Origin: an archaeon
Lineage (GTDB): Archaea; Asgardarchaeota; Heimdallarchaeia; Heimdallarchaeales; JAJRWK01
Length of the DNA: 36,226 nt
Reading direction: 5' to 3'
Assembly (NCBI GenBank): GCA_024276795.1
Contig: JAJRWK010000110.1
Location: forward strand, 1 to 36,226
The position numbers were made by a program, and so were the translations under genes. The notes under the pieces were generated by a model. It did not search any database and was not told the DNA's origin. It worked only from the letters and a program-made list of their open reading frames with translations. Of the stretch, positions 7,318-27,101 are shown in pieces (the stretch's first letter is position 1; each line of letters opens with the position of its first letter).

Positions 7318-8451
7318 ATGAGCAGCCTCCTTTCTTTGATCGATAAAATAGTGGAAGGCATCAGAGACATCCCGCAATGGCTATTAACCTTGCTAAACCG
7401 AATACCCTATGTTGAATTGCAAGGGAAAAATGCTGAGCGAGCAATAGTCGTTTCCTTGCTCTCAGCGGCATTAGGAACATATGTACTCCTTAATCTGCTT
7501 TTGGCTCCGTGGATTGAAAGAAAAGTCATGGCACGAATGATGGGGCGAAGAGGCCCTGTTTACGTCGGAAAATTCGGATTATTGCAATTGATCGCAGATA
7601 TCGCGAAATTGTTGTTCAAGGAAGACACAATGCCAATGACTGCAGATCGCTTCGGATTCAACCTTTCAATTTATCTTATGGGGGCATCTACTATCATGTC
7701 TTTTGGACCCTTGCCATGGGCTAGAGACCTAGCAGGCACCAACATGAGTATCGGTCTGTTGTATATCTTTGCCGTATTCTCCGTCTTCCCACCGGCAATG
7801 TTGCTTGGTGGTTGGGCAAGTAATAGTAAATATTCCCTAATCGGAGGCTTCCGAGCGGCTGCTCAACTTGTGGCTTATGAAATCCCCATGATGATTAGTG
7901 TCCTTGGGGTTATCGTTTATGCTCAGTCATTCAATTTACAAGCAATAGTTGAAGATCAATATCAAAATGGTTGGTACATTTATCGTGCTTTTCCCGGGCT
8001 TCTCATGGCCTTTGTGATTTTTCTTTTCGCAAGTTTGGCAGAAACTGAACGTATCCCCTTCGACATTCCCGAAGCCGAAGCTGAGCTTGTGATGGGGCCA
8101 AGAACAGAATTCAGCGGCTGGAGGTATGGGATTATCTTGTTAGTAGAGTACAGCCACATGTTTGTGAATATCATACTTGTTGTAGTGCTGTTCTTGGGAG
8201 GCTGGGATGTTATCTTCCCATTCAATGGGATGCCTGGCTGGTTAGCTGACCTCCGAGACGATCGCTTGGCACAATTTATAGCCATCAACATTAAAATCTA
8301 TCTTGGTGTATTCTTCGTAACCTGGGTACGCACAACATTCCCTCGTTTCAGAATCGACCAATTCATTGAGTGGGGCTGGAAGACCTTATTGCCATTGTCA
8401 TTGCTTTCCTTGGCTATTGTTGGAGCATATGCCGGATTATACGTTGCTTAG
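7318..8451 (+). CDS. nuoH: NADH-quinone oxidoreductase subunit H
   Basis: A 377-residue membrane subunit that joins the peripheral and membrane arms of complex I and forms most of the quinone chamber. About eight helices are visible. The family signature E-R-K-V-M-A-R-M-M-G-R-R-G-P at about residues 67-80 and the quinone-side loop E-R-I-P-F-D-I-P-E-A-E-A-E-L-V near residues 243-257 are intact. The N-terminus is some 40 residues longer than in bacterial NuoH, with an amphipathic lead. Start ATG is preceded by GGTGAG at 7309-7314. First gene of a tightly spaced nuoHJKLMN run; the homologous Fpo/Fqo subunit H is the alternative name. Confidence 0.96.
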   Translation: MSSLLSLIDKIVEGIRDIPQWLLTLLNRIPYVELQGKNAERAIVVSLLSAALGTYVLLNLLLAPWIERKVMARMMGRRGPVYVGKFGLLQLIADIAKLLFKEDTMPMTADRFGFNLSIYLMGASTIMSFGPLPWARDLAGTNMSIGLLYIFAVFSVFPPAMLLGGWASNSKYSLIGGFRAAAQLVAYEIPMMISVLGVIVYAQSFNLQAIVEDQYQNGWYIYRAFPGLLMAFVIFLFASLAETERIPFDIPEAEAELVMGPRTEFSGWRYGIILLVEYSHMFVNIILVVVLFLGGWDVIFPFNGMPGWLADLRDDRLAQFIAINIKIYLGVFFVTWVRTTFPRFRIDQFIEWGWKTLLPLSLLSLAIVGAYAGLYVA

Positions 8452-8465
8452 GAGTTGATGAAAAA

Positions 8466-8990
8466 ATGGGTTGGTTTTTAGAATTTAATATGATCGTGAT
8501 CATTATTTTCACGCTTTTCATGGCATTTGGCGCTCTTCGCACTGATAAAGTTATGAAGGCTGCTGCTTATCTCTTGCTAACTTTATGGGGGGTTGCTTTT
8601 GCCTACTTATTCTTGGGATCTGAGTATGTCTTTGCGATCCAGCTGATTGTTTATGGTGGTGGTATCGTTGTCTTGTTCCTGTTTTCCGTGTTGCTAACAG
8701 GGCAGGAAGAGTTCCAAATGGATAAAGAATTTGTTTGGAATAATTTGGTTCAGATCCTTATTGCGTTGCTCTTATTCTTCACACTGACAGTGCTGATGCT
8801 TGACGTGTTTGGCGGTTATGAACTGACAGGAAACGAACTAGTAGTCTTGAATGAGACTCAAGACCTAACTCAAACACTTGCGACAGCACTCTTCACAAAT
8901 TACAATTATGTGCTTCCAATACTTGGTATTTTGTTGCTCTCTGCCATGCTTGGGTCGATCAAGATTGCGATTAGAGAGGAGGAATTGTAA
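8466..8990 (+). CDS. nuoJ: NADH-quinone oxidoreductase subunit J
   Basis: A 174-residue subunit with five membrane helices that helps build the proton path near the quinone site. The hallmark Y-G-G-G-I-V-V-L-F-L-F segment, home of the pi-bulge helix TM3, is present near residues 60-70. The frame is open upstream into nuoH, but the ATG at 8466 is chosen because the protein then begins at the usual first helix and GGAG (8451-8454) lies upstream. The 14-base gap to nuoH implies one transcript. The stop at 8990 abuts the nuoK start. Confidence 0.95.
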   Translation: MGWFLEFNMIVIIIFTLFMAFGALRTDKVMKAAAYLLLTLWGVAFAYLFLGSEYVFAIQLIVYGGGIVVLFLFSVLLTGQEEFQMDKEFVWNNLVQILIALLLFFTLTVLMLDVFGGYELTGNELVVLNETQDLTQTLATALFTNYNYVLPILGILLLSAMLGSIKIAIREEEL

Positions 8991-9305
8991 ATGGTCGTAC
9001 CACTCGAATATTTCTTAATTCTCAGCTCTGCATTATTCAGCATCGGCGTCTTCGGCGTAATCACACAAAGAAACGCTGTTAGAATCCTCATTGCGGTAGA
9101 GCTAATCATTAACGCCGCAAATATCAACTTCGTAGCCTTCGCAAGTTACAACCCTGTTGGTGATATTTCCGGCTGGATCTTTGCGCTATTCATTATTGCA
9201 GTAGCTGCCGGAGAGGCAGCAATCGGGCTAGCGATTTTCATCAATGTCTTTCGTAACTATGGAGAAATAGATGTCGGGCATCTATTCACTCTTCGTGAGG
9301 TGTAA
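8991..9305 (+). CDS. nuoK: NADH-quinone oxidoreductase subunit K
   Basis: A 104-residue, three-helix subunit related to MrpC. It carries the two conserved membrane glutamates, one in A-V-E-L-I-I-N-A-A-N in the second helix and one in G-E-A-A-I-G-L-A in the third, both needed for proton transfer between the E-channel and the antiporter-like subunits. It starts immediately after the nuoJ stop and is preceded by GAGAGGAGG, a strong ribosome-binding site inside nuoJ. Length is exactly typical. Confidence 0.96.
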   Translation: MVVPLEYFLILSSALFSIGVFGVITQRNAVRILIAVELIINAANINFVAFASYNPVGDISGWIFALFIIAVAAGEAAIGLAIFINVFRNYGEIDVGHLFTLREV

Positions 9306-9308
9306 AAA

Positions 9309-11417
9309 ATGGCCAGCGAAATTCTACTCGGAAAAACAGTACTCATCTCCCCATTCATTGGGGCTGTCATCGTTTCAATTCTAGCTTTTCTCCATTACAG
9401 TCGTGGTAATAAGCACGAAGGGCACGACTCTGGAAAACACGATACGCACGAAGAGCACACAAGTATTCATTACACCAGGTTTGAAAACGTTGTTTCAACA
9501 TTTGGCATTCTTTCCATTCTCGTGAGCTGGCTTTCAATGGTTTTGCTTGCGATCAACTACTTGCCTGGGGAAGAACATGAAACGCTGCAGTCACAATTTG
9601 GGTTCTTTGGATTTAAAGAAGGAGGCACGCCCGACATTCCTTTTGGATTATTAATTGATCCTCTAAGCGTGTACATGGGCCTAATAGTAACCACTCTAGC
9701 CTTGCTAATTCACATTTACGCAAGAGAATACATGCATGGTGATGCTGGGTATTCCCGATTCTTTGCCACATTCAACTTCTTTACTGGTGTAATGCTGACG
9801 CTCGTTTTCAGCACTAGCTTTCTTGAATTATTCATCTTTTGGGAACTAGTCGGGCTCAGCTCCTATCTGCTTATCGGCTTTTGGTTCTACAAACCAGCTG
9901 CCGCCCATGCTGCAAAGAAAGCATTTCTTTACAACAAAATTGGAGATATTACCCTTTTAGCTGGTTTCCTTATGCTATACAGATATACCCGTACCCTTGA
10001 TTTTGTTGAACTCCCCGCAAAAATGGAAGCCCTCACAGACCAGCAGATCGCAATTGTTGCCGTTCTCATCTTTGGAGGAGTCATAGGGAAATCTGCTCAA
10101 TTTCCACTTTACACATGGCTTGCAGATGCTATGGAAGGTCCAACACCCGTTTCTGCAATTCTGCACTCCTCCACTATGGTAAAAGCAGGAATTTACATGG
10201 TGGCTCGTGTATTTTTCATCTATTACGAAGCACATGATGGACACAACGTATTCGCCGGCGCAGAATGGGCATTAACAGTATTTGCTTGGATTGGTGCAAT
10301 TACTGCTCTTCTTGCCGGACTACAAGCCTTGGTTGAAAATGAGATCAAAAGGATTCTAGCTTATTCAACGGTGTCTCAGATTGGCTACATGGCGATCGCA
10401 CTTGGTACAGGCGGAAAAACTGCAGCAATGTTTCACCTCTTGAGCCATGCAACATTCAAAGCTCTTCTCTTCTTAACTGCAGGAGCAGTTATTCACGCAG
10501 TTCACACAAACAACATCTGGGAAATGGGAGGCCTTCGCAAGAAAATTCCTAAGACGTTTTGGCCCATGCTGATCGGAGCGACAGCTCTAGCGGGCTTTCC
10601 CGGATTTAGTGGCTTTTGGTCCAAAGACGCCGTTCTACTAGCAGCATACGAGAGTAAAGTCCCTGGTCATCTGGTTATTTATTATTTGGGTGCATTGACG
10701 GCATTCATAACCGCACTTTATTCAACACGTTTCATTTACGTAGTATTCTTCCGAACTCCTGATCCCGAACACAAGGAGCACGTCGAGAAGGCTCATGATG
10801 GAGGTTTCTTCCTCACCACGCCTTCCATTATCTTAGGAGTTCTCGTTCTCATAGAGAGCATCCTATTCATTCCAGTATTCAACTTTGAGCATTGGCTCAA
10901 TGAGATACTAGAGCCAGAGGTCAAACCCGAGGCGATTAACTACGTGGTAGCTGGCTCGAGTGCAATCATCGTGCTTCTGGGTATCTTTGTAGGACTAGTG
11001 CTTTATCACTGGAAACCTGAGCTACGAACCTCACTTTACAACATTGATGCATTCAATTGGATTGCAAATGAATTCATAGCCAAGCGGTACCGAATTGACC
11101 AAGTACTATACTGGATCGCCAACGCCCCTGTGATGTGGGTTGCTGGCATTTTGCAAAGCATCGACCTCAAAATCATCGACCGAACTATCATCGATACTTG
11201 GATCGTAAAAGGTTCCCTACAACTGGCCAAAATCTCTGATGTCTTCGACCAAGGATTCATTGACGGTATTGTTAATGGCGTCTGGCAAATATTTCTCTAC
11301 TTTGGTCGTCAATTCCGCAAACTCCAAACCGGCCTCGTCAGCAATTACGCCACAATATTTGCCGCAACACTGGTCTTATTCCTGACATATGTCAACTTCT
11401 TAGTTCTATTCAAATAA
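9309..11417 (+). CDS. nuoL: NADH-quinone oxidoreductase subunit L
   Basis: A 702-residue antiporter-like subunit (MrpA-type), the distal proton pump of complex I. Key charged residues are present: Glu179 in F-W-E-L-V-G and Lys261 in G-K-S-A-Q, with a further Lys in S-S-T-M-V-K-A-G. The C-terminal third (about residues 540-702) holds the long lateral helix and the last membrane anchor, so the subunit is full length. Unusual is a His-rich loop after the first helix, with seven His between residues 29 and 54, and a second cluster near residues 485-497 (E-H-K-E-H-V-E-K-A-H). GAGGTG overlapping the nuoK end serves as ribosome-binding site. Confidence 0.96.
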   Translation: MASEILLGKTVLISPFIGAVIVSILAFLHYSRGNKHEGHDSGKHDTHEEHTSIHYTRFENVVSTFGILSILVSWLSMVLLAINYLPGEEHETLQSQFGFFGFKEGGTPDIPFGLLIDPLSVYMGLIVTTLALLIHIYAREYMHGDAGYSRFFATFNFFTGVMLTLVFSTSFLELFIFWELVGLSSYLLIGFWFYKPAAAHAAKKAFLYNKIGDITLLAGFLMLYRYTRTLDFVELPAKMEALTDQQIAIVAVLIFGGVIGKSAQFPLYTWLADAMEGPTPVSAILHSSTMVKAGIYMVARVFFIYYEAHDGHNVFAGAEWALTVFAWIGAITALLAGLQALVENEIKRILAYSTVSQIGYMAIALGTGGKTAAMFHLLSHATFKALLFLTAGAVIHAVHTNNIWEMGGLRKKIPKTFWPMLIGATALAGFPGFSGFWSKDAVLLAAYESKVPGHLVIYYLGALTAFITALYSTRFIYVVFFRTPDPEHKEHVEKAHDGGFFLTTPSIILGVLVLIESILFIPVFNFEHWLNEILEPEVKPEAINYVVAGSSAIIVLLGIFVGLVLYHWKPELRTSLYNIDAFNWIANEFIAKRYRIDQVLYWIANAPVMWVAGILQSIDLKIIDRTIIDTWIVKGSLQLAKISDVFDQGFIDGIVNGVWQIFLYFGRQFRKLQTGLVSNYATIFAATLVLFLTYVNFLVLFK

Positions 11418-11438
11418 TAGGAGAAAGGTGAAGCGAGA

Positions 11439-12971
11439 ATGGTATTCTATTGGTATCTTTCAATACTCTTATGGCTCCCGCTTATAGCGAGTCCTCTAAC
11501 ATATATGCTCAGCAAAAACAAGGTTGGCTGGGCGAAATGGAGCGCCACAATCATTACATTCGTTGAAATGATCTATTCGTTTGTGTTGTGGATGCTCTAC
11601 ACTTCCAAAGATCGATTTGGAGACAAGTACGTAACAGGTGATGGGTTCGTTTTTCTAGAAAAAACGGACTGGATCGTTGTAGGAAAGATCAAGATTTACT
11701 ATGCTCTCGGCGTTGATGGCCTATCCTTGCCCTTGATCGCCTTGACCACAGTAGTCTTCTTTGCAAGCATGATCAGTTCATTCTACATCAAGGAGAGAGA
11801 ACCCCTTTACTATTCTCTCATGCTTCTGCTTGAAGCTGGAGTCATGGGGACGTTCATTGCTCTCGATCTCTTCCTCTTCTACATTGCATGGGAAGTAGTA
11901 CTTGTACCAATGTTCTTCATCATTGCCTATTGGGGTGGACCCCGACGCAAATATTCTGCGTTTAAGTTCTTCATTTACACTCACTTGGCCTCTCTATTCA
12001 TGCTAATCGGTATCTTCATCCTCTACAATGAGGGTGGTGGAACATTCTACATGCCGCAACTGAAGACTTCACTTTCCACTTACGCAGATGTTGGCCGACT
12101 CATTTTTGCATTCTACTTGTTAGCAATAGGTTTCATTACGAAGTTCCCACAAGTCCCCGTTCATACCTGGCTACCAGATGCTCACGTTGAAGCCCCAAGT
12201 CCTGGTTCAAGCGTCTTAGCTGGCTTGTTGCTTAAAATGGGAGGATACGGTCTAATCCGCTTAGGTGTCTGGCTTTTGCCATCAAGCGTATTCACTGATC
12301 CTTCAAGTCATGTTCGTCTAGTGCTTGCCCTCCTTGGTATGATCTCAATGGCATACACGGCATTCGTTGCACTAAGTCAAAAAGACATGAAACGACTAAT
12401 CGCATATTCTTCCATCGGGCACATGGGTGTTGTCTCACTCGGCGTAGCGTCCTATACCTCAGAAGGAATTAATGCTGCTATCTTCATGATGATTGCCCAC
12501 GGCGTCATTAGTCCTGCTCTCTTTTTGATCAGCGGAGTCATCCAGCACAACGCGGGCACAAGAGACATGACTGTCCTCAAAGGTCTTGGTAACAAAATGC
12601 CAATCACGAGCACTCTAATGGTATTCAGTGGGTTTGCAAGCGCAGGATTACCTGGCCTTGCCGGCTTTGTCGCGGAATTCCTGATGTTTGCTGGTTTATT
12701 CAAGAGTGACATGTTTGGATACGGTGACACCTACTTCTGGATAACCGTAGTTGCCTTGCTCTCTATCATCGTCGTCGCCGGTTACTACTTGTGGATGCTT
12801 CAAAGAGTAGTGTTTGGACAACCAGAAGGTCTAGAGGTTGAACATGACGGGCATTGGTATGAACTAATGCCTCTCTGGTTACTTGCATTCTTCATCCTCT
12901 TCCTGGGCTGGTTCCCATTCGTTGTGCTCAAAGTAACCGACGAGTTTGCACGAACTATTATTCCAATCTGA
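11439..12971 (+). CDS. nuoM: NADH-quinone oxidoreductase subunit M
   Basis: A 510-residue antiporter-like subunit (MrpD-type) with about 14 membrane helices, the middle proton channel of the membrane arm. Essential residues are recognisable: Glu152 in A-W-E-V-V-L-V-P and Lys235 in I-T-K-F-P-Q-V-P, followed by H-T-W-L-P-D-A-H-V-E-A-P, a NuoM hallmark that differs from NuoL and NuoN. GGAGAAAGGTGAAG precedes the ATG; the gap to nuoL is 21 bases. The C-terminal helix ends K-V-T-D-E-F-A-R-T-I-I-P-I without truncation. It is separated from nuoN by 160 bases, the only large gap in this run. Confidence 0.96.
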   Translation: MVFYWYLSILLWLPLIASPLTYMLSKNKVGWAKWSATIITFVEMIYSFVLWMLYTSKDRFGDKYVTGDGFVFLEKTDWIVVGKIKIYYALGVDGLSLPLIALTTVVFFASMISSFYIKEREPLYYSLMLLLEAGVMGTFIALDLFLFYIAWEVVLVPMFFIIAYWGGPRRKYSAFKFFIYTHLASLFMLIGIFILYNEGGGTFYMPQLKTSLSTYADVGRLIFAFYLLAIGFITKFPQVPVHTWLPDAHVEAPSPGSSVLAGLLLKMGGYGLIRLGVWLLPSSVFTDPSSHVRLVLALLGMISMAYTAFVALSQKDMKRLIAYSSIGHMGVVSLGVASYTSEGINAAIFMMIAHGVISPALFLISGVIQHNAGTRDMTVLKGLGNKMPITSTLMVFSGFASAGLPGLAGFVAEFLMFAGLFKSDMFGYGDTYFWITVVALLSIIVVAGYYLWMLQRVVFGQPEGLEVEHDGHWYELMPLWLLAFFILFLGWFPFVVLKVTDEFARTIIPI

Positions 12972-13088
12972 GGTTGAACATCGGGGCATAACCATGGCAT
13001 CCACAACTAATTACATTGCAAACCAGCAATCATACAATATCGCGCTTTGCTCACGTCATGGTGTAATGCCCAATCCCTCTCTTGTCTC

Positions 13089-13097
13089 TTATAAAAG
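13089..13097 (+). promoter_or_regulatory. Internal TATA box for nuoN
   Basis: TTATAAAAG lies 39 bases before the nuoN ATG in the nuoM-nuoN gap. Initiation about 26 bases downstream would leave a short leader carrying AAAGGAGGTC (13114-13123), so nuoN may also be made from its own promoter. The rest of the 160-base gap could encode at most a 44-residue peptide (ATG at 12994) with no recognisable features. Confidence 0.45.
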
Positions 13098-13131
13098 AAA
13101 AGGGAAAAAGCAAAAAGGAGGTCTATAATTC

Positions 13132-14607
13132 ATGTCAGAATATGAAATTGTCATAAAATCATTCATGCCGATCTACATCCTAATAGGGGGTAGCATCCTA
13201 TCTCTCCTAATGGACTGGTTGCTTAATGAAGAGAAGAACAAACATGCATTGCCCAGCATAACCTTACTCACATTATTGCTCTCTGCATTCTCTGTCTGGA
13301 ATCGACCAGACCCTGCTCTATTTCCTGGTAATCCCGCAATGTTTTACTTCGGGAGCTATTACGTGTTCTTTGCCCTTACAAGCATTGCAGCGAGTATTAT
13401 CGTTGTTCTTGCTGCTTGGAAGGACATGGAACTTGAGCTAAGCTTGGGAGTGTTTTATGCATTGTTAATGTTAGCAAACATTGGCATCTTCGTAATTGGT
13501 GCCTCAAATAACTTAATCCCTCTCTACGTTGGCTTCGAAGTACTTAGCATCTCAACCTATGCAATGATCGGCTTCAGAAAGAAATCACGATCTGGTGCGG
13601 AAGCAGCGATAAAATACTTCTTACTAGGTGCTCTTTCATCTGGGATCATCCTCTTTGGAATGAGTTTATACTACGGGGCGACTCATACGCTTCAAATGAA
13701 CTCAACAGTTGCCGCAGCGCTAGTATCTTCGGGTTCATCACCCAACGCCTTCGGTCTTTTCACCATGGCGGTATTAGTTGCTGGGGTGAGCTTCAAAATT
13801 GCGGCTGTTCCATTCCATGTATGGGTACCCGATGTTTATAGAGGGGCACCATTAAGCGTTACGAATTTCCTTGCCATTGGAAGCAAAGCAGGAGGCTTCG
13901 CCTTTCTCTTTAAGCTATTCTTTGTAGCACTTCTAACGATCAAGGCCGGTTGGGCCCCCGTCTGGGCGGGACTGGCTCTGCTCACAATGGTAATTGGAAA
14001 TCTTGCAGCTTTGCCACAAACAAGCGTTACTCGAATTCTTGCATATTCAAGTATCGGCCATGTTGGCTACATTCTTATTGCCATGGTGGCGTTTGCAGAC
14101 GGGTCAACAGAGCTTGCGGTTGTTGGTGCGCTGTATCATATCTTGGCCAATGTATTCATGAAAGGAACTGCATTCGTAGTAGTGCTTATCGTAGTTTTGA
14201 CGAAAGGCGGGGACACTTTGGATGACTTTAAAGGATTAGGCAAGCGCGATCCTCTCGTCGCATTCTTCATGAGTATTGCTCTTCTTTCCCTCGCAGGAGT
14301 GCCGCCCTTTGCCGGATTCTTTGGCAAATTCTTCTTGTTCTATGCTGCCGTTGATTCAGGGAATATGTATCTTGCCGTGGTTGGCATTATTATGAGTGCG
14401 ACCTCGCTATTCTATTATGCTCGCATCATCCATGTCATGTATTTCTATGAACCTGTAGATGATGCCTCTGACCAATCACAACCACGCTTCTTGGTTCTAC
14501 TCGTAGCTTTGCTACTCGCAAATCTAGCACTTTCCCTTGGAGCTATCTTTTACACACGCAGTATTGTTGATTTTGCGACCCAAGTGGCTCAAGAATTTTT
14601 TGTGTAA
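13132..14607 (+). CDS. nuoN: NADH-quinone oxidoreductase subunit N
   Basis: A 491-residue antiporter-like subunit with about 14 membrane helices, the proximal proton pump. Glu136 (G-F-E-V-L-S-I-S) and Lys222 (S-F-K-I-A-A-V-P-F-H) correspond to the conserved pair. The F-H-V-W-V-P-D-V-Y-R-G-A-P stretch is typical of NuoN. The ATG has a perfect AAAGGAGGTC ribosome-binding site upstream, and a TATA box in the nuoM-nuoN gap could drive separate expression. Last gene of the cluster; a hairpin terminator follows. No nuoABCDI or electron-input genes adjoin it. Confidence 0.96.
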   Translation: MSEYEIVIKSFMPIYILIGGSILSLLMDWLLNEEKNKHALPSITLLTLLLSAFSVWNRPDPALFPGNPAMFYFGSYYVFFALTSIAASIIVVLAAWKDMELELSLGVFYALLMLANIGIFVIGASNNLIPLYVGFEVLSISTYAMIGFRKKSRSGAEAAIKYFLLGALSSGIILFGMSLYYGATHTLQMNSTVAAALVSSGSSPNAFGLFTMAVLVAGVSFKIAAVPFHVWVPDVYRGAPLSVTNFLAIGSKAGGFAFLFKLFFVALLTIKAGWAPVWAGLALLTMVIGNLAALPQTSVTRILAYSSIGHVGYILIAMVAFADGSTELAVVGALYHILANVFMKGTAFVVVLIVVLTKGGDTLDDFKGLGKRDPLVAFFMSIALLSLAGVPPFAGFFGKFFLFYAAVDSGNMYLAVVGIIMSATSLFYYARIIHVMYFYEPVDDASDQSQPRFLVLLVALLLANLALSLGAIFYTRSIVDFATQVAQEFFV

Positions 14608-15883: not shown

Positions 15884-16651
15884 ATGCAAAGTAGTCACCT
15901 GTTTAAAAGAGACGCAGAAGGAGTCCCGCACATCAAAATTGTTATTTGGGGACCCTCTCTAGCCGGAAAAACCAGCATGCTAACAGTATTCAACATCTTG
16001 AAAAGGATTGAAGATCCTGATTTGGTTTATTCTGAATTGAAAAGAATCGACGATCCTTCGGGAAGAACGATTTATTACGATCAGAGCATATTTGAGCTCC
16101 CCAAGGGTCAGGGAACTAGTCTCCCGTTACTAAGATACCAGGTCTGGACTGTTGCTGGTCAAGAACGACACAGAGATACGCGCCGAATCGTCATACGTGG
16201 TGCCGATGGCATTATCATCATGTTTGATCCCAGCAAAGAACAATGGGAGGCCAACAAAAAAAGCCTTGCTGAGCTGAAAACGTTAATGGGTGATGAATTA
16301 GGTTCAAAAATCCCATTTTTGGTAATTGTAAACAAAATCGATCTACCAAAGGAGGAAAGAACCCCTACTGAAGAGTTTATGCAACTTCTGGTTGAGATGG
16401 GACTTGCCGCAAATGTTGGAGAAGCGTACATGAAAACCCTCGAGATTAGCTGTCTTGATGCGAGAAATGATTTGCTTGCCTTGCCTCGTCGTCCAGATTG
16501 GCGAGATCTTATTGATGGAAAAGGAAGGTTGAAACGAGAAGCCAGACCCGAAAGTGTGAGAAGAGTTGCTCAGCCAATAGAGCAAATTACGAGGATGATC
16601 ATTGAAAACAAGATCAAGCAGCACAAGACAAAGCCTCATCCAGAGGCCTAA
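15884..16651 (+). CDS. MglA-like small GTPase 1 (long form)
   Basis: A 255-residue Ras-superfamily GTPase. The P-loop is G-P-S-L-A-G-K-T at residues 23-30. The switch II motif is T-V-A-G-Q-E at 89-94, the MglA-type form lacking the Asp of canonical D-x-x-G. The base-specifying N-K-I-D lies at 150-153. Arg61 in S-G-R-T-I-Y-Y-D matches the position of the intrinsic arginine finger of bacterial MglA (inference). Compared with the second GTPase at 20273 it has an insertion around residues 38-56, an insertion at 73-82 and a basic C-terminal tail of about 70 residues. There is no lipidation motif. The paired dyad upstream and roadblock genes nearby suggest a regulated molecular switch. Confidence 0.9.
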   Translation: MQSSHLFKRDAEGVPHIKIVIWGPSLAGKTSMLTVFNILKRIEDPDLVYSELKRIDDPSGRTIYYDQSIFELPKGQGTSLPLLRYQVWTVAGQERHRDTRRIVIRGADGIIIMFDPSKEQWEANKKSLAELKTLMGDELGSKIPFLVIVNKIDLPKEERTPTEEFMQLLVEMGLAANVGEAYMKTLEISCLDARNDLLALPRRPDWRDLIDGKGRLKREARPESVRRVAQPIEQITRMIIENKIKQHKTKPHPEA

Positions 16652-16661
16652 GGCCCTTTTT
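16645..16661 (+). terminator. GC hairpin plus T-run ending GTPase 1
   Basis: GGCC-TAA-GGCC, with the stop codon of the GTPase as its loop, is followed by C and five Ts (16657-16661). It is short but GC-rich in an AT-rich setting and sits exactly at the gene end. Confidence 0.45.
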
Positions 16662-16741
16662 CGATTTTTCCTCGATGTAGAGATTTTTCTTTCGCCGCAA
16701 CAACCGTAATTAAAATGAACCCAATTCCTTTTTGAAAATCT

Positions 16742-17629
16742 GTGAGGGCATGGGCACCCGGTCAAATAACTATGTTCTTTTCTCCGTTCAAAGCTACAAA
16801 TCCCTTATTCTCGGGCTCTTATGGTGTTTCATTCACTATTGAAAAAGGCATAACCGCAAGGATCTCTTCCATTATAGAATCAAGAGACATTGTCCATTAT
16901 AATAACATGAAGCTTTCATCTGGTCCCTCACTAGAGGTAATCTCTCATCTGAGATCTCTGTCGGATAAATACATTCCCCCGATCATGGTAGAACAGAAAG
17001 GAGTCCTACCCATATCTGCCGGGCTCTCTTCTAGTGGGGCGGGAGCACTTGCAACAGCAATCGCGCTAAATCAGCATTTTTCTCTGGGTTTAGATATCAC
17101 AACCTTGGGTCAAGTCGCTCATAAGGCTGAAGTACAATGCTTAACCGGTCTGGGCTCTGTGTTCACCCAATTTCATGGTGGGTTTATTCTTAGAAGTTAT
17201 CCGGGGGCTCCTGGCATCGGTTCATTTATTCGCTTTAAGCTACCCAACTCATGGGACCGATCGGTTTTGATTTTGTCTTGGGGTGGTCTCTCTACGTCAG
17301 AGATCCTTCAAGACCATCAACAATTTGCTAGAATCAAGAAAATTGGTCTTAGCCACACACATAATCTTATGAGTGAACCAACTTTTGAAAACGCACTCTT
17401 TCTTGCCAAGGACTTCATGAATCAAAGCCAGTTACTGCCACCGTTTCTAGCTTCTATTCTTTCTGAGTTAGAATCGTTTGATGTCATGGGAGCAGGAATG
17501 GCGATGTTGGGAAATACGATTTTCATTTTTGCTAATGATGACGTCCTTCATGAGATCGTGCAATCATTTTCAGCACCAACTACTATTAGAACCAAAATAA
17601 GGGAGTTGCCATTACGGGAAGGTAATTGA
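16742..17629 (+). CDS. Pantoate kinase (GHMP family)
   Basis: A 295-residue GHMP kinase that phosphorylates pantoate with ATP, the first dedicated step of the archaeal route to 4'-phosphopantothenate. It begins W-A-P-G-Q-I-T-M-F-F, close to the A-P-G-H-I-T-x-F-F start of archaeal PoK, followed by a G-S-Y-G segment. The ATP-binding GHMP loop is P-I-S-A-G-L-S-S-S-G-A at residues 90-100. The C-terminal M-G-A-G-M-A-M-L-G block matches the third motif. GTG is the start; TATA-like AATTAAAA lies about 30 bases upstream. The assignment is strengthened by the next gene, which carries out the following step; other GHMP sugar or mevalonate kinases are less likely. Confidence 0.9.
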   Translation: MRAWAPGQITMFFSPFKATNPLFSGSYGVSFTIEKGITARISSIIESRDIVHYNNMKLSSGPSLEVISHLRSLSDKYIPPIMVEQKGVLPISAGLSSSGAGALATAIALNQHFSLGLDITTLGQVAHKAEVQCLTGLGSVFTQFHGGFILRSYPGAPGIGSFIRFKLPNSWDRSVLILSWGGLSTSEILQDHQQFARIKKIGLSHTHNLMSEPTFENALFLAKDFMNQSQLLPPFLASILSELESFDVMGAGMAMLGNTIFIFANDDVLHEIVQSFSAPTTIRTKIRELPLREGN

Positions 17630-17687
17630 AGGTTGCGTGAAGAACTCTTACTGAAAAACTCTCAATTTCCGAGAAACCATTTGCTAG

Positions 17688-18521
17688 GTGAACTTATTGA
17701 CTGAAACAGGTTCAACTGATAATTTCATTCCAGATGATCATCCTCGCTCGGAGTCCCTACGAATTAGGCATAAACTGGTAGAAGGCTTTGAAAAGGGATT
17801 AGTTGCAAAAGCCGGACTAATTGCTCATGGGCGGGGGGAAGCCTTTGACTACCTCCTTGGAGAAAAAACCATTGAAAGTGCGGAAAAAGCAATTCAAGCC
17901 TCAGTTGCGCAAATGTTACTTTGCAAGCATCCTGTGATCAGCGTGAATGGCAATGTAGCAGCACTCGTTGCCGAAGAAATAGTTGGATTGTCAGAAGCAG
18001 TTTCAGCTCCTTTAGAAGTTAATCTTTTTTATCGTTCACGCGAGAGGGAGCTCGCCATACAAGAAGCTCTCCTCGAAGCTGGCGCTAAGCAAGTCCTAGG
18101 GGTCGACCTAGATCATCGAACCTTGCTTCCAGGAATCTCACATCAGCGAAGATATGTTGATGATCGTGGCATAGCCAACGCAGACATTGTGCTTGTGATG
18201 CTGGAAGATGGAGATCGGACAATCGCCTTAAGAGCGGCTAATAAATTCGTTGTTGCAATCGACTTAAACCCACTTTCGCGAACCGCGCTTGCCGGGTCGT
18301 TTACGATTGTAGACAATTTGATACGGTCTATACCACTAATGACGAAGATGGCTGATAAGCTCAAAGGGAAAGATGTGGTTGAACTGCAACAAATTATTGA
18401 TACATATTCCCATCAGAGAACGCTTGAGGATGCGCTAAGAGTTATGGGGCAATCATACAAACAAGTTGCCCCAATGCTTGATTCCATTATTGTAGCTATT
18501 AAGGACAAGCAGAAGAAATAA
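17688..18521 (+). CDS. 4-phosphopantoate-beta-alanine ligase (phosphopantothenate synthetase)
   Basis: A 277-residue protein of the archaeal DUF137 family, which condenses 4-phosphopantoate and beta-alanine with ATP to give 4'-phosphopantothenate for CoA. Recognisable segments are L-I-A-H-G-R-G-E-A-F-D-Y-L-L-G-E near residues 45-60, the P-V-I-S-V-N-G-N-V-A-A-L block, E-V-N-L-F-Y-R, and V-A-I-D-L-N-P-L-S-R-T-A. The frame can start at GTG 17688 or at TTG 17697; in the latter case AGGTGA at 17686-17691 would be the ribosome-binding site, and I slightly prefer it. It follows pantoate kinase after 58 bases, forming a two-step CoA module. It converges with the V4R gene. Confidence 0.93.
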   Translation: MNLLTETGSTDNFIPDDHPRSESLRIRHKLVEGFEKGLVAKAGLIAHGRGEAFDYLLGEKTIESAEKAIQASVAQMLLCKHPVISVNGNVAALVAEEIVGLSEAVSAPLEVNLFYRSRERELAIQEALLEAGAKQVLGVDLDHRTLLPGISHQRRYVDDRGIANADIVLVMLEDGDRTIALRAANKFVVAIDLNPLSRTALAGSFTIVDNLIRSIPLMTKMADKLKGKDVVELQQIIDTYSHQRTLEDALRVMGQSYKQVAPMLDSIIVAIKDKQKK

Positions 18522-18550
18522 TACATTTTCCCATGGTCTTACTTTTTTCT

Positions 18551-19774
18551 CTAAACGGACTTTACTGAGAGCTCCATTAAACAGTACTTGTCTTTACGTT
18601 TTGTCGCAGGATATCTGTTTGTAAATTTGAATTCCTTCCCTAGAATTTCAGTAAGAGCTCCTTCCCATATACCCATTATGAAATCGCATAATTGAACGTT
18701 GCTAGGTTGGCATCTTTCCCCTGGCTTGAGGAAGCAGAAACACCTCGCTTTGATGTCTCGGATAATCGTAGTACTTTGGGATTCAGTAATTTCTTGGATA
18801 AGAATTGCATTGGGATCGTTTCCCGCAATACCAATGACACCTTTCCCAAAAAATTTCCCAACATCATATCCTATGCTATTTGTTGGGACTCCCTCAGCCA
18901 AGGATTTCTCGACTAAAAATTTTACCAGAATCAAGACTGCTACCTTGTGGTCTACATTTCCTGCTTGCTCTAGAGGATTAGTCTGATACTTTGTTTGAAT
19001 GAAGTCTGACATGATTTCTATTAGGATACGATAAAGCGTGTCAAGCCCTAGTGCCTTATTAAAAATTGGGGTAAGTATTTGTTCTGGATCGATGTTTGCG
19101 ATGTAATCTTGGATTTCTTCTTCCAGACTGCTTATACTGGTCGAGGGCGTTGAACTAATACCCATTTCTTGTTTGTTGCTAAGCTGGGGTGTAGCACTTG
19201 TGGTCTGTTTTTTTGCGATCACTTTTGTCCCTATCAGAATGCTACTGCTGGGCGCTAAGACGACGTTCCAAACTGCTCCTGCTAGCTCGTCGAACGTGGC
19301 TTCAACCTTGACTTCTTTTGAGAACACATAATATCCAATTCCAGTAAAGACACCTTCGATGAATATTTTGACCGCTTCATGAGATATTCCCGTTTCCGGA
19401 ATGAATCGATTGTTCCCTAGGACCGCTCTAGCCTCGGTTGCCGAAACCACTCTGATCTCACTATTTTTCCATCCGAGCGTGAGGAGAAACATCTGGATTT
19501 GCTCGTTGATATTATATGCAATGTCTGGCTGGAAGTATTCCCGAAAGATTCTTGCTATGCTTAGCTTATATTCCTCATTTTCTCCTTCCCCTTTATTCTG
19601 AGCTTGCTCTCCAAGTTCTAATAATGCATTAATTAGGGCTCTCAACACTTGGCTATTGCGGATTTTTTCACTCCCGAATTTGGTCCAAATCGATTTGATC
19701 GTTGACACGCTTGATCTCCTCTCTTTCGAATCTTCGATAGGAGCACTTACATAAAGTTGCTGATGGGATTTCAC
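18551..19774 (-). CDS. Tandem V4R (4-vinyl reductase/Bet3-fold) domain protein
   Basis: A 407-residue soluble protein that appears to contain two V4R-like domains. Copy one spans about residues 40-175 and ends I-F-I-E-G-V-F-T-G-I-G-Y-Y-V-F. Copy two spans about 235-405 and ends C-D-F-I-M-G-I-W-E-G-A-L-T-E-I-L-G-K. Both show the family pattern of a small-residue helix (x-G-x-x-x-G) then a beta strand. Five Cys (345, 347, 355, 363, 398) lie only in copy two and may bind metal. A Ser/Thr/Gln linker (about 187-217) joins the halves. V4R shares its fold with TRAPP Bet3 subunits. Start GTG; it is divergent from the roadblock/GTPase genes, sharing a 107-base promoter gap, which suggests a linked role. 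Domain calls are from pattern alone. Confidence 0.65.
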   Translation of the reverse strand: MKSHQQLYVSAPIEDSKERRSSVSTIKSIWTKFGSEKIRNSQVLRALINALLELGEQAQNKGEGENEEYKLSIARIFREYFQPDIAYNINEQIQMFLLTLGWKNSEIRVVSATEARAVLGNNRFIPETGISHEAVKIFIEGVFTGIGYYVFSKEVKVEATFDELAGAVWNVVLAPSSSILIGTKVIAKKQTTSATPQLSNKQEMGISSTPSTSISSLEEEIQDYIANIDPEQILTPIFNKALGLDTLYRILIEIMSDFIQTKYQTNPLEQAGNVDHKVAVLILVKFLVEKSLAEGVPTNSIGYDVGKFFGKGVIGIAGNDPNAILIQEITESQSTTIIRDIKARCFCFLKPGERCQPSNVQLCDFIMGIWEGALTEILGKEFKFTNRYPATKRKDKYCLMELSVKSV

Positions 19775-19881
19775 CCAAGTGGAATAATAAGTGAGCCTCT
19801 TTTCTAGCAGATCACATAGGGCAAATGTATAAAACTCCTTAAAAGAATAAACAACTTAGAGATTTCTGAGGCGAGTGATGC

Positions 19882-20217
19882 TTGTTATCACAACGCAAAT
19901 TCCAACCAATACTAGAAAACCTACTCAAATACAACGGTGTCAAGTCCGTGGTCATTGCAAATGAGGAAGGATTTCCTCTTGCATTTCAGTCGAAGGATCC
20001 TTCCTTCACCTCAGATGATGCTGAAGTAGCGGCTGCCGTATTTGCGTCCCTCGTGGGCAAGGCAAATCTGGCAACAAAACAGATCAATAGGGGAGAACTT
20101 AATTTCTTCACCTTAGATCTAACCACTGGTGAGATTCTGGTTGCTCTCGAACAAGACTATATTGTTATTGCTATACGTGAGAGACCAGATAAAACATCTC
20201 GAAGTTTAATGTCCTGA
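19882..20217 (+). CDS. Roadblock/LC7-like domain protein 1
   Basis: A 111-residue small alpha/beta protein of the roadblock/LC7 superfamily, dimeric platforms that bind small GTPases (MglB, LAMTOR, dynein LC7). It shows the usual pattern of an N-terminal helix (F-Q-P-I-L-E-N-L-L), the strand G-V-K-S-V-V-I-A-N-E-E-G-F-P-L-A, a long helix (E-V-A-A-A-V-F-A-S-L-V-G-K-A), and paired strands ending Y-I-V-I-A-I-R-E-R. The final helix is shortened compared with roadblock 2 at 21034. The start is TTG at 19882, after GAGGCGAG. The GTPase gene follows 55 bases downstream in the same direction, so the two are probably co-transcribed. Confidence 0.82.
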   Translation: MLSQRKFQPILENLLKYNGVKSVVIANEEGFPLAFQSKDPSFTSDDAEVAAAVFASLVGKANLATKQINRGELNFFTLDLTTGEILVALEQDYIVIAIRERPDKTSRSLMS

Positions 20218-20272
20218 TGGATCAACATAGGAACTCATTGTAATTGCTGAACAAAGGAAGGAGAATAGAAGC

Positions 20273-20869
20273 ATGCGAAAGGATACCAAGGGAAGAATTC
20301 ATTTTAAAGTCGTTTTCGTTGGGCCGTCATTGTCCGGCAAAACCACACTCCTCCGATACCTGCATGATCAAGTACAGGGTCTACTCAAGGGGAGTCTCAC
20401 TTCGGTAGAGGATCCCAGTGGAAGAACGATTTATTTTGACTTTGTCCCGTTTAGTGCTACGGGGAAAGTATTGCTAGATGTATACACCGTTGCGGGGCAA
20501 CGTAGACATCGCGATCAGAGAAAATTGATTTTGAAAGGAGTTGACGGGTTACTCTTTGTTGCAGACTCTAATCCCGAGTTACGAAACGACAATATAGAAT
20601 CTGCTGATGAGCTTCGATTGTTCTTCGGTGACAAGCTTGGTAGTGAAATCCCCTTGGTAATTGTTCTAAACAAGAGAGACCTTCCTAATGCGATGGATCG
20701 AGACGACATGATCAAGGACTTGTCATTCCCACCCGGCACCCCTGTGTTCGAGACGATCGCAACAAAAGGAGTAGGCGTTAAGAGAGCATTTCAAAGCTTG
20801 TCCCGTGAAATCATCTTAAGAAAACTTTACGCACCAAGTGCTGAAACAAAACCAACCACAACAGAATAA
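20273..20869 (+). CDS. MglA-like small GTPase 2
   Basis: A 198-residue GTPase of the MglA type. The P-loop is G-P-S-L-S-G-K-T at residues 17-24, the switch region contains S-G-R-T-I-Y-F-D-F with Arg51 at the MglA arginine-finger position, switch II is T-V-A-G-Q at 72-76, and guanine specificity comes from N-K-R-D at 133-136. The stretch L-I-L-K-G-V-D-G-L-L-F-V-A-D-S is almost diagnostic of MglA-family proteins. Length equals bacterial MglA. ATG with GGAGAA upstream (20259-20264). It is flanked by roadblock genes on both sides, the classic MglA-MglB pairing, in which the roadblock dimer acts as GTPase activator or exchange partner. Confidence 0.93.
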   Translation: MRKDTKGRIHFKVVFVGPSLSGKTTLLRYLHDQVQGLLKGSLTSVEDPSGRTIYFDFVPFSATGKVLLDVYTVAGQRRHRDQRKLILKGVDGLLFVADSNPELRNDNIESADELRLFFGDKLGSEIPLVIVLNKRDLPNAMDRDDMIKDLSFPPGTPVFETIATKGVGVKRAFQSLSREIILRKLYAPSAETKPTTTE

Positions 20870-21033
20870 GGCAAAAGAATGTCAGACCTCTCGAACTCGT
20901 ATTATTCTCTTGCATATTTGCTCTTATCTTTTTGCCGAAAAATCATTTGAATGAATACACTACACAGAAAGCATTAAAATCAAAGACGAAGTAAGTACTA
21001 ATGTCATAAACACAAAGGCGAGGGCCGATCACA

Positions 21034-21420
21034 TTGTTTGACATTGGATTCGAATCAAAACAAACAGAATTGCGAAGTATATTGAAAGAACTGGAAATGA
21101 ACATTCGAGAAATCGAAGCAGCTGCAGTTGTTAGCATCGAGGGGCTACCCATAGCAGCATCATTGCCTGACGACATTGAGGAAACCATGTTGGCAGCGAT
21201 GACAGCTTCCATGCTGAGCCTAGGAGAAAGAGTTTCCCAAGAGCTCAAACGAGGAAATCTCGAAAAAATCTTTGTCGAAGGCTCCAATGGTTATGTGATC
21301 TCAACAGCAGCCGGCCCCAATGCAGTACTCGCCGTTTCGGCTAGAAAAGATGCCAAACTCGGCCTAATCTTCCTCGACATGCAGCAAGCGGCCCAGAAAA
21401 TCGCCCAACTCCTTTCGTGA
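21034..21420 (+). CDS. Roadblock/LC7 domain protein 2 (MglB-like)
   Basis: A 128-residue roadblock/LC7 protein closer to MglB than roadblock 1. An N-terminal helix (L-R-S-I-L-K-E-L-E-M-N-I) leads to strand A-A-A-V-V-S-I-E-G-L-P-I-A-A-S-L-P, a long helix (E-E-T-M-L-A-A-M-T-A-S-M-L-S-L-G-E-R), and G-N-L-E-K-I-F-V-E-G. The final strands A-V-L-A-V-S-A-R-K-D and helix are complete. Its likely partner is GTPase 2, 164 bases upstream. In that gap GGCAAAA (20870-20876) can pair with TTTTGCC before 20938 across a long loop. The start is TTG at 21034; GGCGAGG lies upstream. Whether it activates or anchors the GTPase cannot be read from sequence. Confidence 0.93.
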   Translation: MFDIGFESKQTELRSILKELEMNIREIEAAAVVSIEGLPIAASLPDDIEETMLAAMTASMLSLGERVSQELKRGNLEKIFVEGSNGYVISTAAGPNAVLAVSARKDAKLGLIFLDMQQAAQKIAQLLS

Positions 21421-26333: not shown

Positions 26334-27101
26334 TTACTCCCCGAAATTTCTTGTTCTTTGTTGATATGTTCGAATCGCCCTTAGTAAATCGATCTTTCTA
26401 AATAATGGCCAGAAAACTTCTGCAAAATAAAATTCCGAATAGGCACTCTGCCACATCAAGAAACCACTCAATCGTTCTTGGCCGCTTGTTCTAATGATGA
26501 GATCAGGGTCTGGAAGTCCGGCTGTGTACAAATTCCTGGCAATGACTTCTTCAGAAATTTCCTCCGGATTTAGATCTCCATTTTTAACATGCCGTGCGAT
26601 ATTCCTGACCGCATCTGTGATTTCTCTGCGCCCCCCGTACGCCAATAATATGTTCAATATTCTTTGATCATAATTCTCAGTTGCTTTTTCGGTTAACTCT
26701 ATCTCTTCTATTAGCTCAGGCGGAAGGAGCTCCCTCGCACCAGAAACTATTACTTTGACTTTTCTTTCATGCGTTTTCCTGTCTTCACGAATCTTTCTCA
26801 TTTTCTCTTTTGCCATTTTCATGATGAGTTCCACTTGTTCTTTTGAACGATTAAAATTCTCAGTGGAGAACACCCAAACCGAAACTACCTTTATATCCAA
26901 ATCCCAGCACCATTCTAGAACTTCTTCAAGTTTCTTGGCTCCTTGTTCGTAGGCCGACGCATAATCAATCCCTTTGAAAGCGGCGTATCGGCGATTGCCG
27001 TCCAGGATAATACCAATGTGTTTTGGAATTGGTCCTTGGGAAATTTGGCTAAGTAATTTTCTAGTGTAGACAACGTAAGCAGGGGCTAGGACTGACTGCA
27101 T
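26334..27101 (-). CDS. uppS: Cis-prenyltransferase (undecaprenyl/decaprenyl diphosphate synthase type)
   Basis: A 255-residue enzyme that extends a prenyl diphosphate with cis double bonds to make the lipid carrier for glycan transfer (dolichyl phosphate precursor in archaea). The family signature H-I-G-I-I-L-D-G-N-R-R-Y-A is at residues 28-40, with catalytic Asp34. S-V-W-V-F-S-T-E-N-F and D-L-I-I-R-T-S-G-Q-E-R-L-S-G-F-L-M-W-Q are the substrate and IPP-binding motifs. ATG start with GGTGA (minus strand, 27107-27111) five bases before it and a TATA box upstream. Its stop lies six bases from the converging coiled-coil gene. Product chain length is not predictable. Confidence 0.96.
   Translation of the reverse strand: MQSVLAPAYVVYTRKLLSQISQGPIPKHIGIILDGNRRYAAFKGIDYASAYEQGAKKLEEVLEWCWDLDIKVVSVWVFSTENFNRSKEQVELIMKMAKEKMRKIREDRKTHERKVKVIVSGARELLPPELIEEIELTEKATENYDQRILNILLAYGGRREITDAVRNIARHVKNGDLNPEEISEEVIARNLYTAGLPDPDLIIRTSGQERLSGFLMWQSAYSEFYFAEVFWPLFRKIDLLRAIRTYQQRTRNFGE

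What the first reader, a model, noticed from the sequence alone, without database searches (positions are those of the whole stretch)
15884..21420. Clustered MglA-like GTPases, roadblock proteins and a tandem V4R protein
Within 5.5 kb lie two MglA-type GTPases (15884, 20273), two roadblock/LC7 proteins (19882, 21034) flanking the second GTPase, and a two-domain V4R protein divergently transcribed from the roadblock-GTPase pair. Roadblocks are known GTPase partners (MglB, LAMTOR), and V4R shares its fold with Bet3 subunits of TRAPP, a Rab exchange factor. The arrangement suggests a complete switch: GTPase, roadblock activator or platform, and a Bet3-fold regulator. The functional link to V4R is inference from fold and position.
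Basis: partly seen in the sequence, partly recalled or inferred. Interest (0 to 1): 0.75.

Follow-up and report, generated by a model that had tools for sequence, protein, structure and literature searches.

The report
Asgard MglA switch with several roadblocks
This piece of a Heimdallarchaeal genome carries part of a gene cluster found in many Asgard archaea, in which one bacterial-type molecular-switch protein (MglA) sits among up to three different 'roadblock' partner proteins, one of them resembling a eukaryotic dynein light chain; the neighbouring V4R gene is probably not part of it.

Summary
GTPase 2 is MglA-type (PDB MglA E 6e-45; Arf 1.6e-15) and lies between two roadblock genes. The triplet is part of a phylum-wide array, RBa-RBb-MglA-RBc, same order and strand, in 25 genomes of 10 Asgard families. 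Hodarchaeales keep RBb-MglA-RBc (12/12); the window's genus keeps RBa-MglA-RBc (3/3), with RBb on another contig. RBa is nearest dynein light chain roadblock (4e-23), RBb groups with bacterial MglB, RBc is nearest CvnB-type (4e-18).

The V4R claim holds structurally (two Bet3/V4R-fold halves) but not functionally: the family is limited to Heimdallarchaeia plus one outlier family, absent from every genome with the full array, and beside roadblock-GTPase only in this genus. GTPase 1 is an unlinked MglA paralogue. Best reading: an MglA switch served by several roadblock dimers. No interaction was measured or modelled. A published analysis of one Lokiarchaeon found GTPase and roadblock genes generally not in operons; the Lokiarchaeal-type families tested here lack the array. 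New variant of a known kind.

The parts
19882..20217 (+). RBa: short roadblock (RBLC7 type, no C-terminal helix), dynein light chain roadblock-like
   Evidence: Pfam Robl_LC7 2e-13; RBa profile hits dynein light chain roadblock 4e-23, own protein 1e-5; RBa clade SH-aLRT 97
20273..20869 (+). GTPase 2: MglA-type small GTPase, core of the array
   Evidence: PDB MglA 6e-45; R51, T72, Q76 conserved with bacterial MglA; orthologue (E<1e-45) in 53 of 57 relatives, 53-75% identity outside the genus
21034..21420 (+). RBc: full-length roadblock, CvnB-like
   Evidence: Pfam 3e-18; RBc profile hits CvnB5 4e-18, Rv3364c 3e-14
18551..19774 (-). Tandem Bet3/V4R-fold protein; adjacent but probably not part of the switch
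   Evidence: AF2 models pLDDT 79 (whole) and 93 (N-half); Foldseek TRAPPC3/V4R; four conserved Cys in C-half; class-restricted
15884..16651 (+). GTPase 1: MglA-type paralogue with C-terminal extension, not linked to the array in most relatives
   Evidence: on another contig in G002 and more than 1 Mb away in G010
19775..19881 (.). 107-bp divergent intergenic region with a TATA-like stretch (about 19827-19833)
   Evidence: read in sequence; promoter function not tested
26334..27101 (-). cis-prenyltransferase; directly downstream of RBc in many Asgard families, displaced here
   Evidence: Pfam 3e-76; gap to RBc 9-227 bp on the same strand in about 20 genomes of 8 families

Best explanation
The region holds a reduced copy of an ancestral Asgard gene array, RBa-RBb-MglA-RBc, that encodes one MglA-type GTPase and its roadblock regulators. 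Shown here: conserved order and strand, MglA catalytic residues, distinct roadblock lineages. Inferred: the MglB-like roadblock RBb (on another contig in this genome) forms a dimer that binds the GTP-loaded GTPase and stimulates hydrolysis by repositioning the GTPase's own Arg and Gln; RBa (dynein-roadblock-like, lacking the C-terminal helix) and RBc (CvnB-like) form further dimers that dock on RBb or the GTPase, as MglC docks on MglB, and serve as a platform that places or tunes the switch, perhaps at the membrane. The V4R protein is a separate, probably ligand-binding protein.
For: RBa-RBb-MglA-RBc in 25 genomes of 10 families, RBb-MglA-RBc in 12/12 Hodarchaeales, RBa-MglA-RBc in the window's genus, gaps mostly 10-260 bp but up to about 800 bp. 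RBa and RBb stay adjacent (convergent) in all 9 f6 genomes, where the GTPase stands alone (positions). RBb joins bacterial MglB (SH-aLRT 87; both clades starred), and bacterial mglB also precedes mglA. R51, T72 and Q76 in 87, 89 and 88 of 89 Asgard proteins, as in bacterial MglA. Precedents: MglB acts by repositioning MglA residues (PMC4316618, PMC9481161); MglC, an MglB paralogue, binds MglB 2:4 (PMC7949163).
Against: No physical interaction shown. In the window's genome the putative activator RBb is not in the array, so co-expression is not guaranteed. f6 and Lokiarchaeal-type families have an MglA-like GTPase without adjacent roadblocks. RBb is far below the NCBIfam MglB equivalog cut-off (25.9 against 200 bits). 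Neighbouring genes such as the cis-prenyltransferase are also conserved, so part of the synteny may not be functional. RBc clade support is weak (22).
Confidence: 0.65

Rival explanations
1. Complete TRAPP-like switch: the tandem V4R protein is an exchange factor or tether for GTPase 2 together with the roadblocks.
For: Divergent adjacency in 3/3 genomes of the genus with 107-457 bp gaps; both halves have the Bet3 fold; in Hodarchaeales the homologue lies 0.6-1.4 kb from a Rab-type GTPase in 8/8 genomes with both on one contig; in one f7 genome a roadblock is divergent to it.
Against: Absent from all genomes with the full array; 11 kb to over 1 Mb from GTPase 2 in other genomes with both on one contig, G018 (1.2 kb) excepted; next to CoA genes in f3; the Hodarchaeal link lies in a block syntenic within one genus. 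TRAPPC3 in Asgard was proposed to bind ligands (PMC10933270).
Confidence: 0.1
2. Ancestral synteny without joint function: a slowly rearranging block (roadblocks, MglA, cis-prenyltransferase, others) inherited together.
For: Flanking genes such as the cis-prenyltransferase recur in many families.
Against: Three roadblock lineages in fixed order around the GTPase type that roadblocks are known to serve, retained across deep lineages while most flanks change; the RBa/RBb pair stays together after separation from MglA in f6.
Confidence: 0.15
3. The roadblocks form a Ragulator-like scaffold for other GTPases (Rag or Rab type), and the MglA-type GTPase is only one client.
For: Both RB and RBLC7 architectures, as in Ragulator (PMC10933270); the RBb profile weakly hits LAMTOR2 (5e-4).
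Against: The conserved partner in the array is the MglA-type GTPase; no Rag-type GTPase was seen in the array.
Confidence: 0.1

Closest known systems
Bacterial MglA-MglB (with MglC / RomY) polarity switch
   Same: MglA-type GTPase with intrinsic Arg and Gln; MglB-like roadblock gene upstream; an additional roadblock paralogue (MglC) or cofactor (RomY) acting on MglB
   Different: Three roadblock lineages in one fixed archaeal array, one of them dynein-like; Ala instead of Pro in the G3 motif; output unknown
Actinobacterial conservon (CvnA-D)
   Same: Conserved array of MglA-type GTPase and CvnB roadblock; among named solved structures RBc is nearest CvnB5
   Different: No histidine kinase or CvnC seen; several roadblocks
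Asgard RB / RBLC7 / TRAPPC3 proteins (Tran et al. 2024, PMC10933270)
   Same: Same protein families, structures solved there
   Different: That paper found no general operon linkage in MK-D1; the array is not described there
Eukaryotic dynein light chain roadblock and Ragulator
   Same: RBa is close to dynein light chain roadblock in sequence and length; RB plus RBLC7 combination as in Ragulator
   Different: The eukaryotic complexes named contain no MglA; to my knowledge dynein's roadblock has no GTPase partner

Membership tests
MglA family of small GTPases (GTPase 2) | Closest to MglA rather than Arf/Rab/Ras | tested here: met
   Profile A2: MglA 6e-45, Arf5 1.6e-15, Rab7 1e-11
MglA family of small GTPases (GTPase 2) | Intrinsic Arg finger, Thr in G3, catalytic Gln | tested here: met
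   R51 87/89, T72 89/89, Q76 88/89
MglA family of small GTPases (GTPase 2) | Pro before Gly-Gln in G3 (TVPGQ of the bacterial proteins compared); to my knowledge not a family-wide defining residue | tested here: not met
   Ala in 89/89 Asgard, Pro in 55/55 bacterial
MglA family of small GTPases (GTPase 2) | Gene coupled to a roadblock gene | tested here: met
MglB (for RBb) | Groups with bacterial MglB in a tree | tested here: met
   SH-aLRT 87 for the joint branch, quick tree
MglB (for RBb) | NCBIfam MglB equivalog cut-off | tested here: not met
   25.9 against 200 bits; so RBb is called MglB-like, not MglB
MglB (for RBb) | GAP activity on its GTPase | not testable with these tools
   needs biochemistry
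V4R / TRAPPC3 (Bet3) fold | Pfam V4R above cut-off | tested here: not met
   13.9 against 31 bits
V4R / TRAPPC3 (Bet3) fold | Fold by structure comparison | tested here: met
   N-half: TRAPPC3 E 6.8e-4, TRAPPC6 TM 0.61; whole model TRAPPC3 E 3.6e-3
V4R / TRAPPC3 (Bet3) fold | Cys4 zinc site as in Thor-TRAPPC3 | tested here: inconclusive
   C347, C355, C363, C398 conserved in 39, 34, 41, 41 of 41; metal not shown; no such set in the N-half
TRAPP exchange factor | Exchange activity on a GTPase, with longin partners | not testable with these tools
   no prediction of complexes of separate chains available

The most novel reading that the evidence does not exclude
The Asgard array encodes a hetero-oligomeric roadblock platform for an MglA GTPase that preserves the setting from which eukaryotic dynein light chain roadblock (through RBa) and Ragulator-type RB/RBLC7 assemblies arose, so that dynein's roadblock began as part of a small-GTPase regulator.
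Probability: 0.2. Interest if true: 0.85.

Novelty: new variant of a known kind. Interest (0 to 1): 0.6.

Why it matters
Asgard genomes hold dozens of small GTPases and roadblocks, and a 2024 structural study concluded that genome layout gives little help in matching them, on the basis of one Lokiarchaeon. This array gives a specific set of partners (one GTPase, three roadblocks) in most of the non-Lokiarchaeal Asgard families sampled, ready for reconstitution. It also puts a close relative of dynein light chain roadblock into a GTPase gene array, which makes an old idea about the origin of that subunit testable.

Tried and rejected
V4R as a conserved partner of GTPase 2: rejected as a general rule. 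V4R-Rab link in Hodarchaeales as independent proof: not accepted, since the whole block is syntenic within one genus. GTPase 1 as part of the switch: rejected, not linked in most relatives. Sequence test for duplication of the V4R halves by hhalign: negative (probability 0.2). PDB search with the V4R profile: only chance-level hits. Literature search by PDB codes 7F8F, 7F8M, 9JUE gave nothing relevant, so I do not state the source organisms of those entries. Complex prediction was not possible with the tools.

Full report
What is there. The window is contig C20 of a Heimdallarchaeota-type genome (G000; named relatives).

GTPase 2. A profile of 21 orthologues hits solved MglA at 6e-45 and the best Arf at 1.6e-15. 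The MglA catalytic set (Arg finger R51, T72, Q76) is present in 87, 89 and 88 of 89 Asgard proteins; the proline of the bacterial G3 motif is alanine throughout. In a quick tree the bacterial MglA proteins form one clade; the branching between them, the Asgard proteins and two long-branched Asgard paralogues is not resolved. GTPase 1 belongs to a separate paralogous clade and is not linked to the array in most relatives.

The array. In 57 close relatives I mapped the GTPase and both roadblocks. In the window's genus (3 genomes) the order is RBa-MglA-RBc; in f2, f4 and some f3 genomes RBa and MglA stay adjacent; in f5 (includes Ca. Hodarchaeum mangrovi) the order is RBb-MglA-RBc in 12 of 12. 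In the rest of the phylum the full RBa-RBb-MglA-RBc array occurs in the same order and strand in 25 genomes of 10 families, among them Baldrarchaeota (f10), Hermod (f11) and the family that holds Thorarchaeota SZ_4_bin3.344 (f28), often with a fourth, divergent roadblock (RBd) upstream (names matched through contig lengths and coordinates). The window's genome still has RBb, on contig C230. f6 has lost the linkage to MglA but keeps RBa and RBb as a convergent pair in 9 of 9 genomes (positions). Families f14-f19, f22 and f25 (Lokiarchaeal types and others; the assignment to Lokiarchaeia is my inference) have only a more distant MglA-like GTPase with no roadblock found beside it. This fits the published remark that MK-D1 GTPase genes are generally not in operons with roadblocks (PMC10933270).

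Three kinds of roadblock. The RBa and RBb groups are supported clades (97, 98); RBc is one side of a branch but with support of only 22. RBb groups with bacterial MglB (87). Profiles against the PDB separate them: RBa hits dynein light chain roadblock at 4e-23 and no MglB; RBb hits MglB (6e-7) and, weakly, LAMTOR2 (5e-4); RBc hits CvnB5 (4e-18) and Rv3364c (3e-14). The window's own RBa hits dynein roadblock at 1e-5. RBa ends soon after the last strand and so lacks the C-terminal helix, the RBLC7 design described for Asgard proteins (PMC10933270). The class profiles were seeded by gene position, so the class names are partly circular; the tree is the independent check. Whether RBa is the closest of all Asgard roadblocks to dynein's was not tested.

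Downstream neighbour. A cis-prenyltransferase follows RBc on the same strand within 9-227 bp in about 20 genomes of 8 families; in the window it lies 5 kb away on the other strand. Conserved flanks mean that some of the synteny may be inherited rather than functional.

The V4R protein. Both halves adopt the Bet3/V4R fold, and four cysteines of the C-terminal half are conserved. The family is single-copy in Heimdallarchaeia plus one outlier family (54 of 228 genomes) and absent at E<=1e-10 from every genome with the full array. Its neighbours change: roadblock-GTPase in the window's genus, CoA genes in f3, other genes in f4, a Rab-type GTPase in f5 (8 of 8 with both on one contig, 0.6-1.4 kb, but one genus and a syntenic block), a roadblock in one f7 genome. 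I read it as a separate protein, most likely ligand-binding as proposed for Asgard TRAPPC3 (PMC10933270).

How it works. Shown: gene order, families, catalytic residues. Inferred: RBb as MglB-like activator; RBa and RBc as further dimers that form a platform or tune RBb, on the precedent of MglC binding MglB 2:4 (PMC7949163) and RomY stimulating MglB (PMC9481161). The output is unknown.

Prior knowledge. Coupling of MglA to one or two MglB genes is known in bacteria, and archaeal group 4 MglA was reported without conserved neighbours (PMC4316618, before Asgard genomes). Searches of the open library for Asgard with MglA, or with roadblock and operon terms, returned few papers, and none that I read describes this array; subscription papers were not searched.

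Noticed in passing
L074, L075, L130-L135 (f5, Hodarchaeales): A Rab-type GTPase, an antisense 119-124-aa gene without Pfam match, and the tandem V4R gene form a conserved trio in one genus; a possible V4R-GTPase pair to test.
   Followed up: partly
L139:894-1298 and 1481-2563 (f7): A roadblock gene divergent to a tandem V4R homologue, like the window's arrangement but with a different roadblock.
   Followed up: no
window 26334-27101 and the loci: cis-prenyltransferase directly downstream of RBc in many Asgard families, possibly part of the same operon.
   Followed up: partly
L207, L227, L248 (bacteria): Zixiibacteriota and Sumerlaeota MglA genes (349-395 aa) with roadblock genes on both sides, up to four in L207: a bacterial parallel to the Asgard array.
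   Followed up: no
L138:15169-16690 and L141:9573-10900: GTPase 1 orthologues in f5 lie directly next to a Rab-type GTPase gene.
   Followed up: no
L192, L195: Contigs titled Lokiarchaeota and Thorarchaeota match genomes of one family (f28) by coordinates, so a deposited name looks wrong.
   Followed up: partly
window 7318-14607: Block of complex I-type membrane subunits (NuoH, J, K, L, M, N by eye) next to the TBP gene.
   Followed up: no
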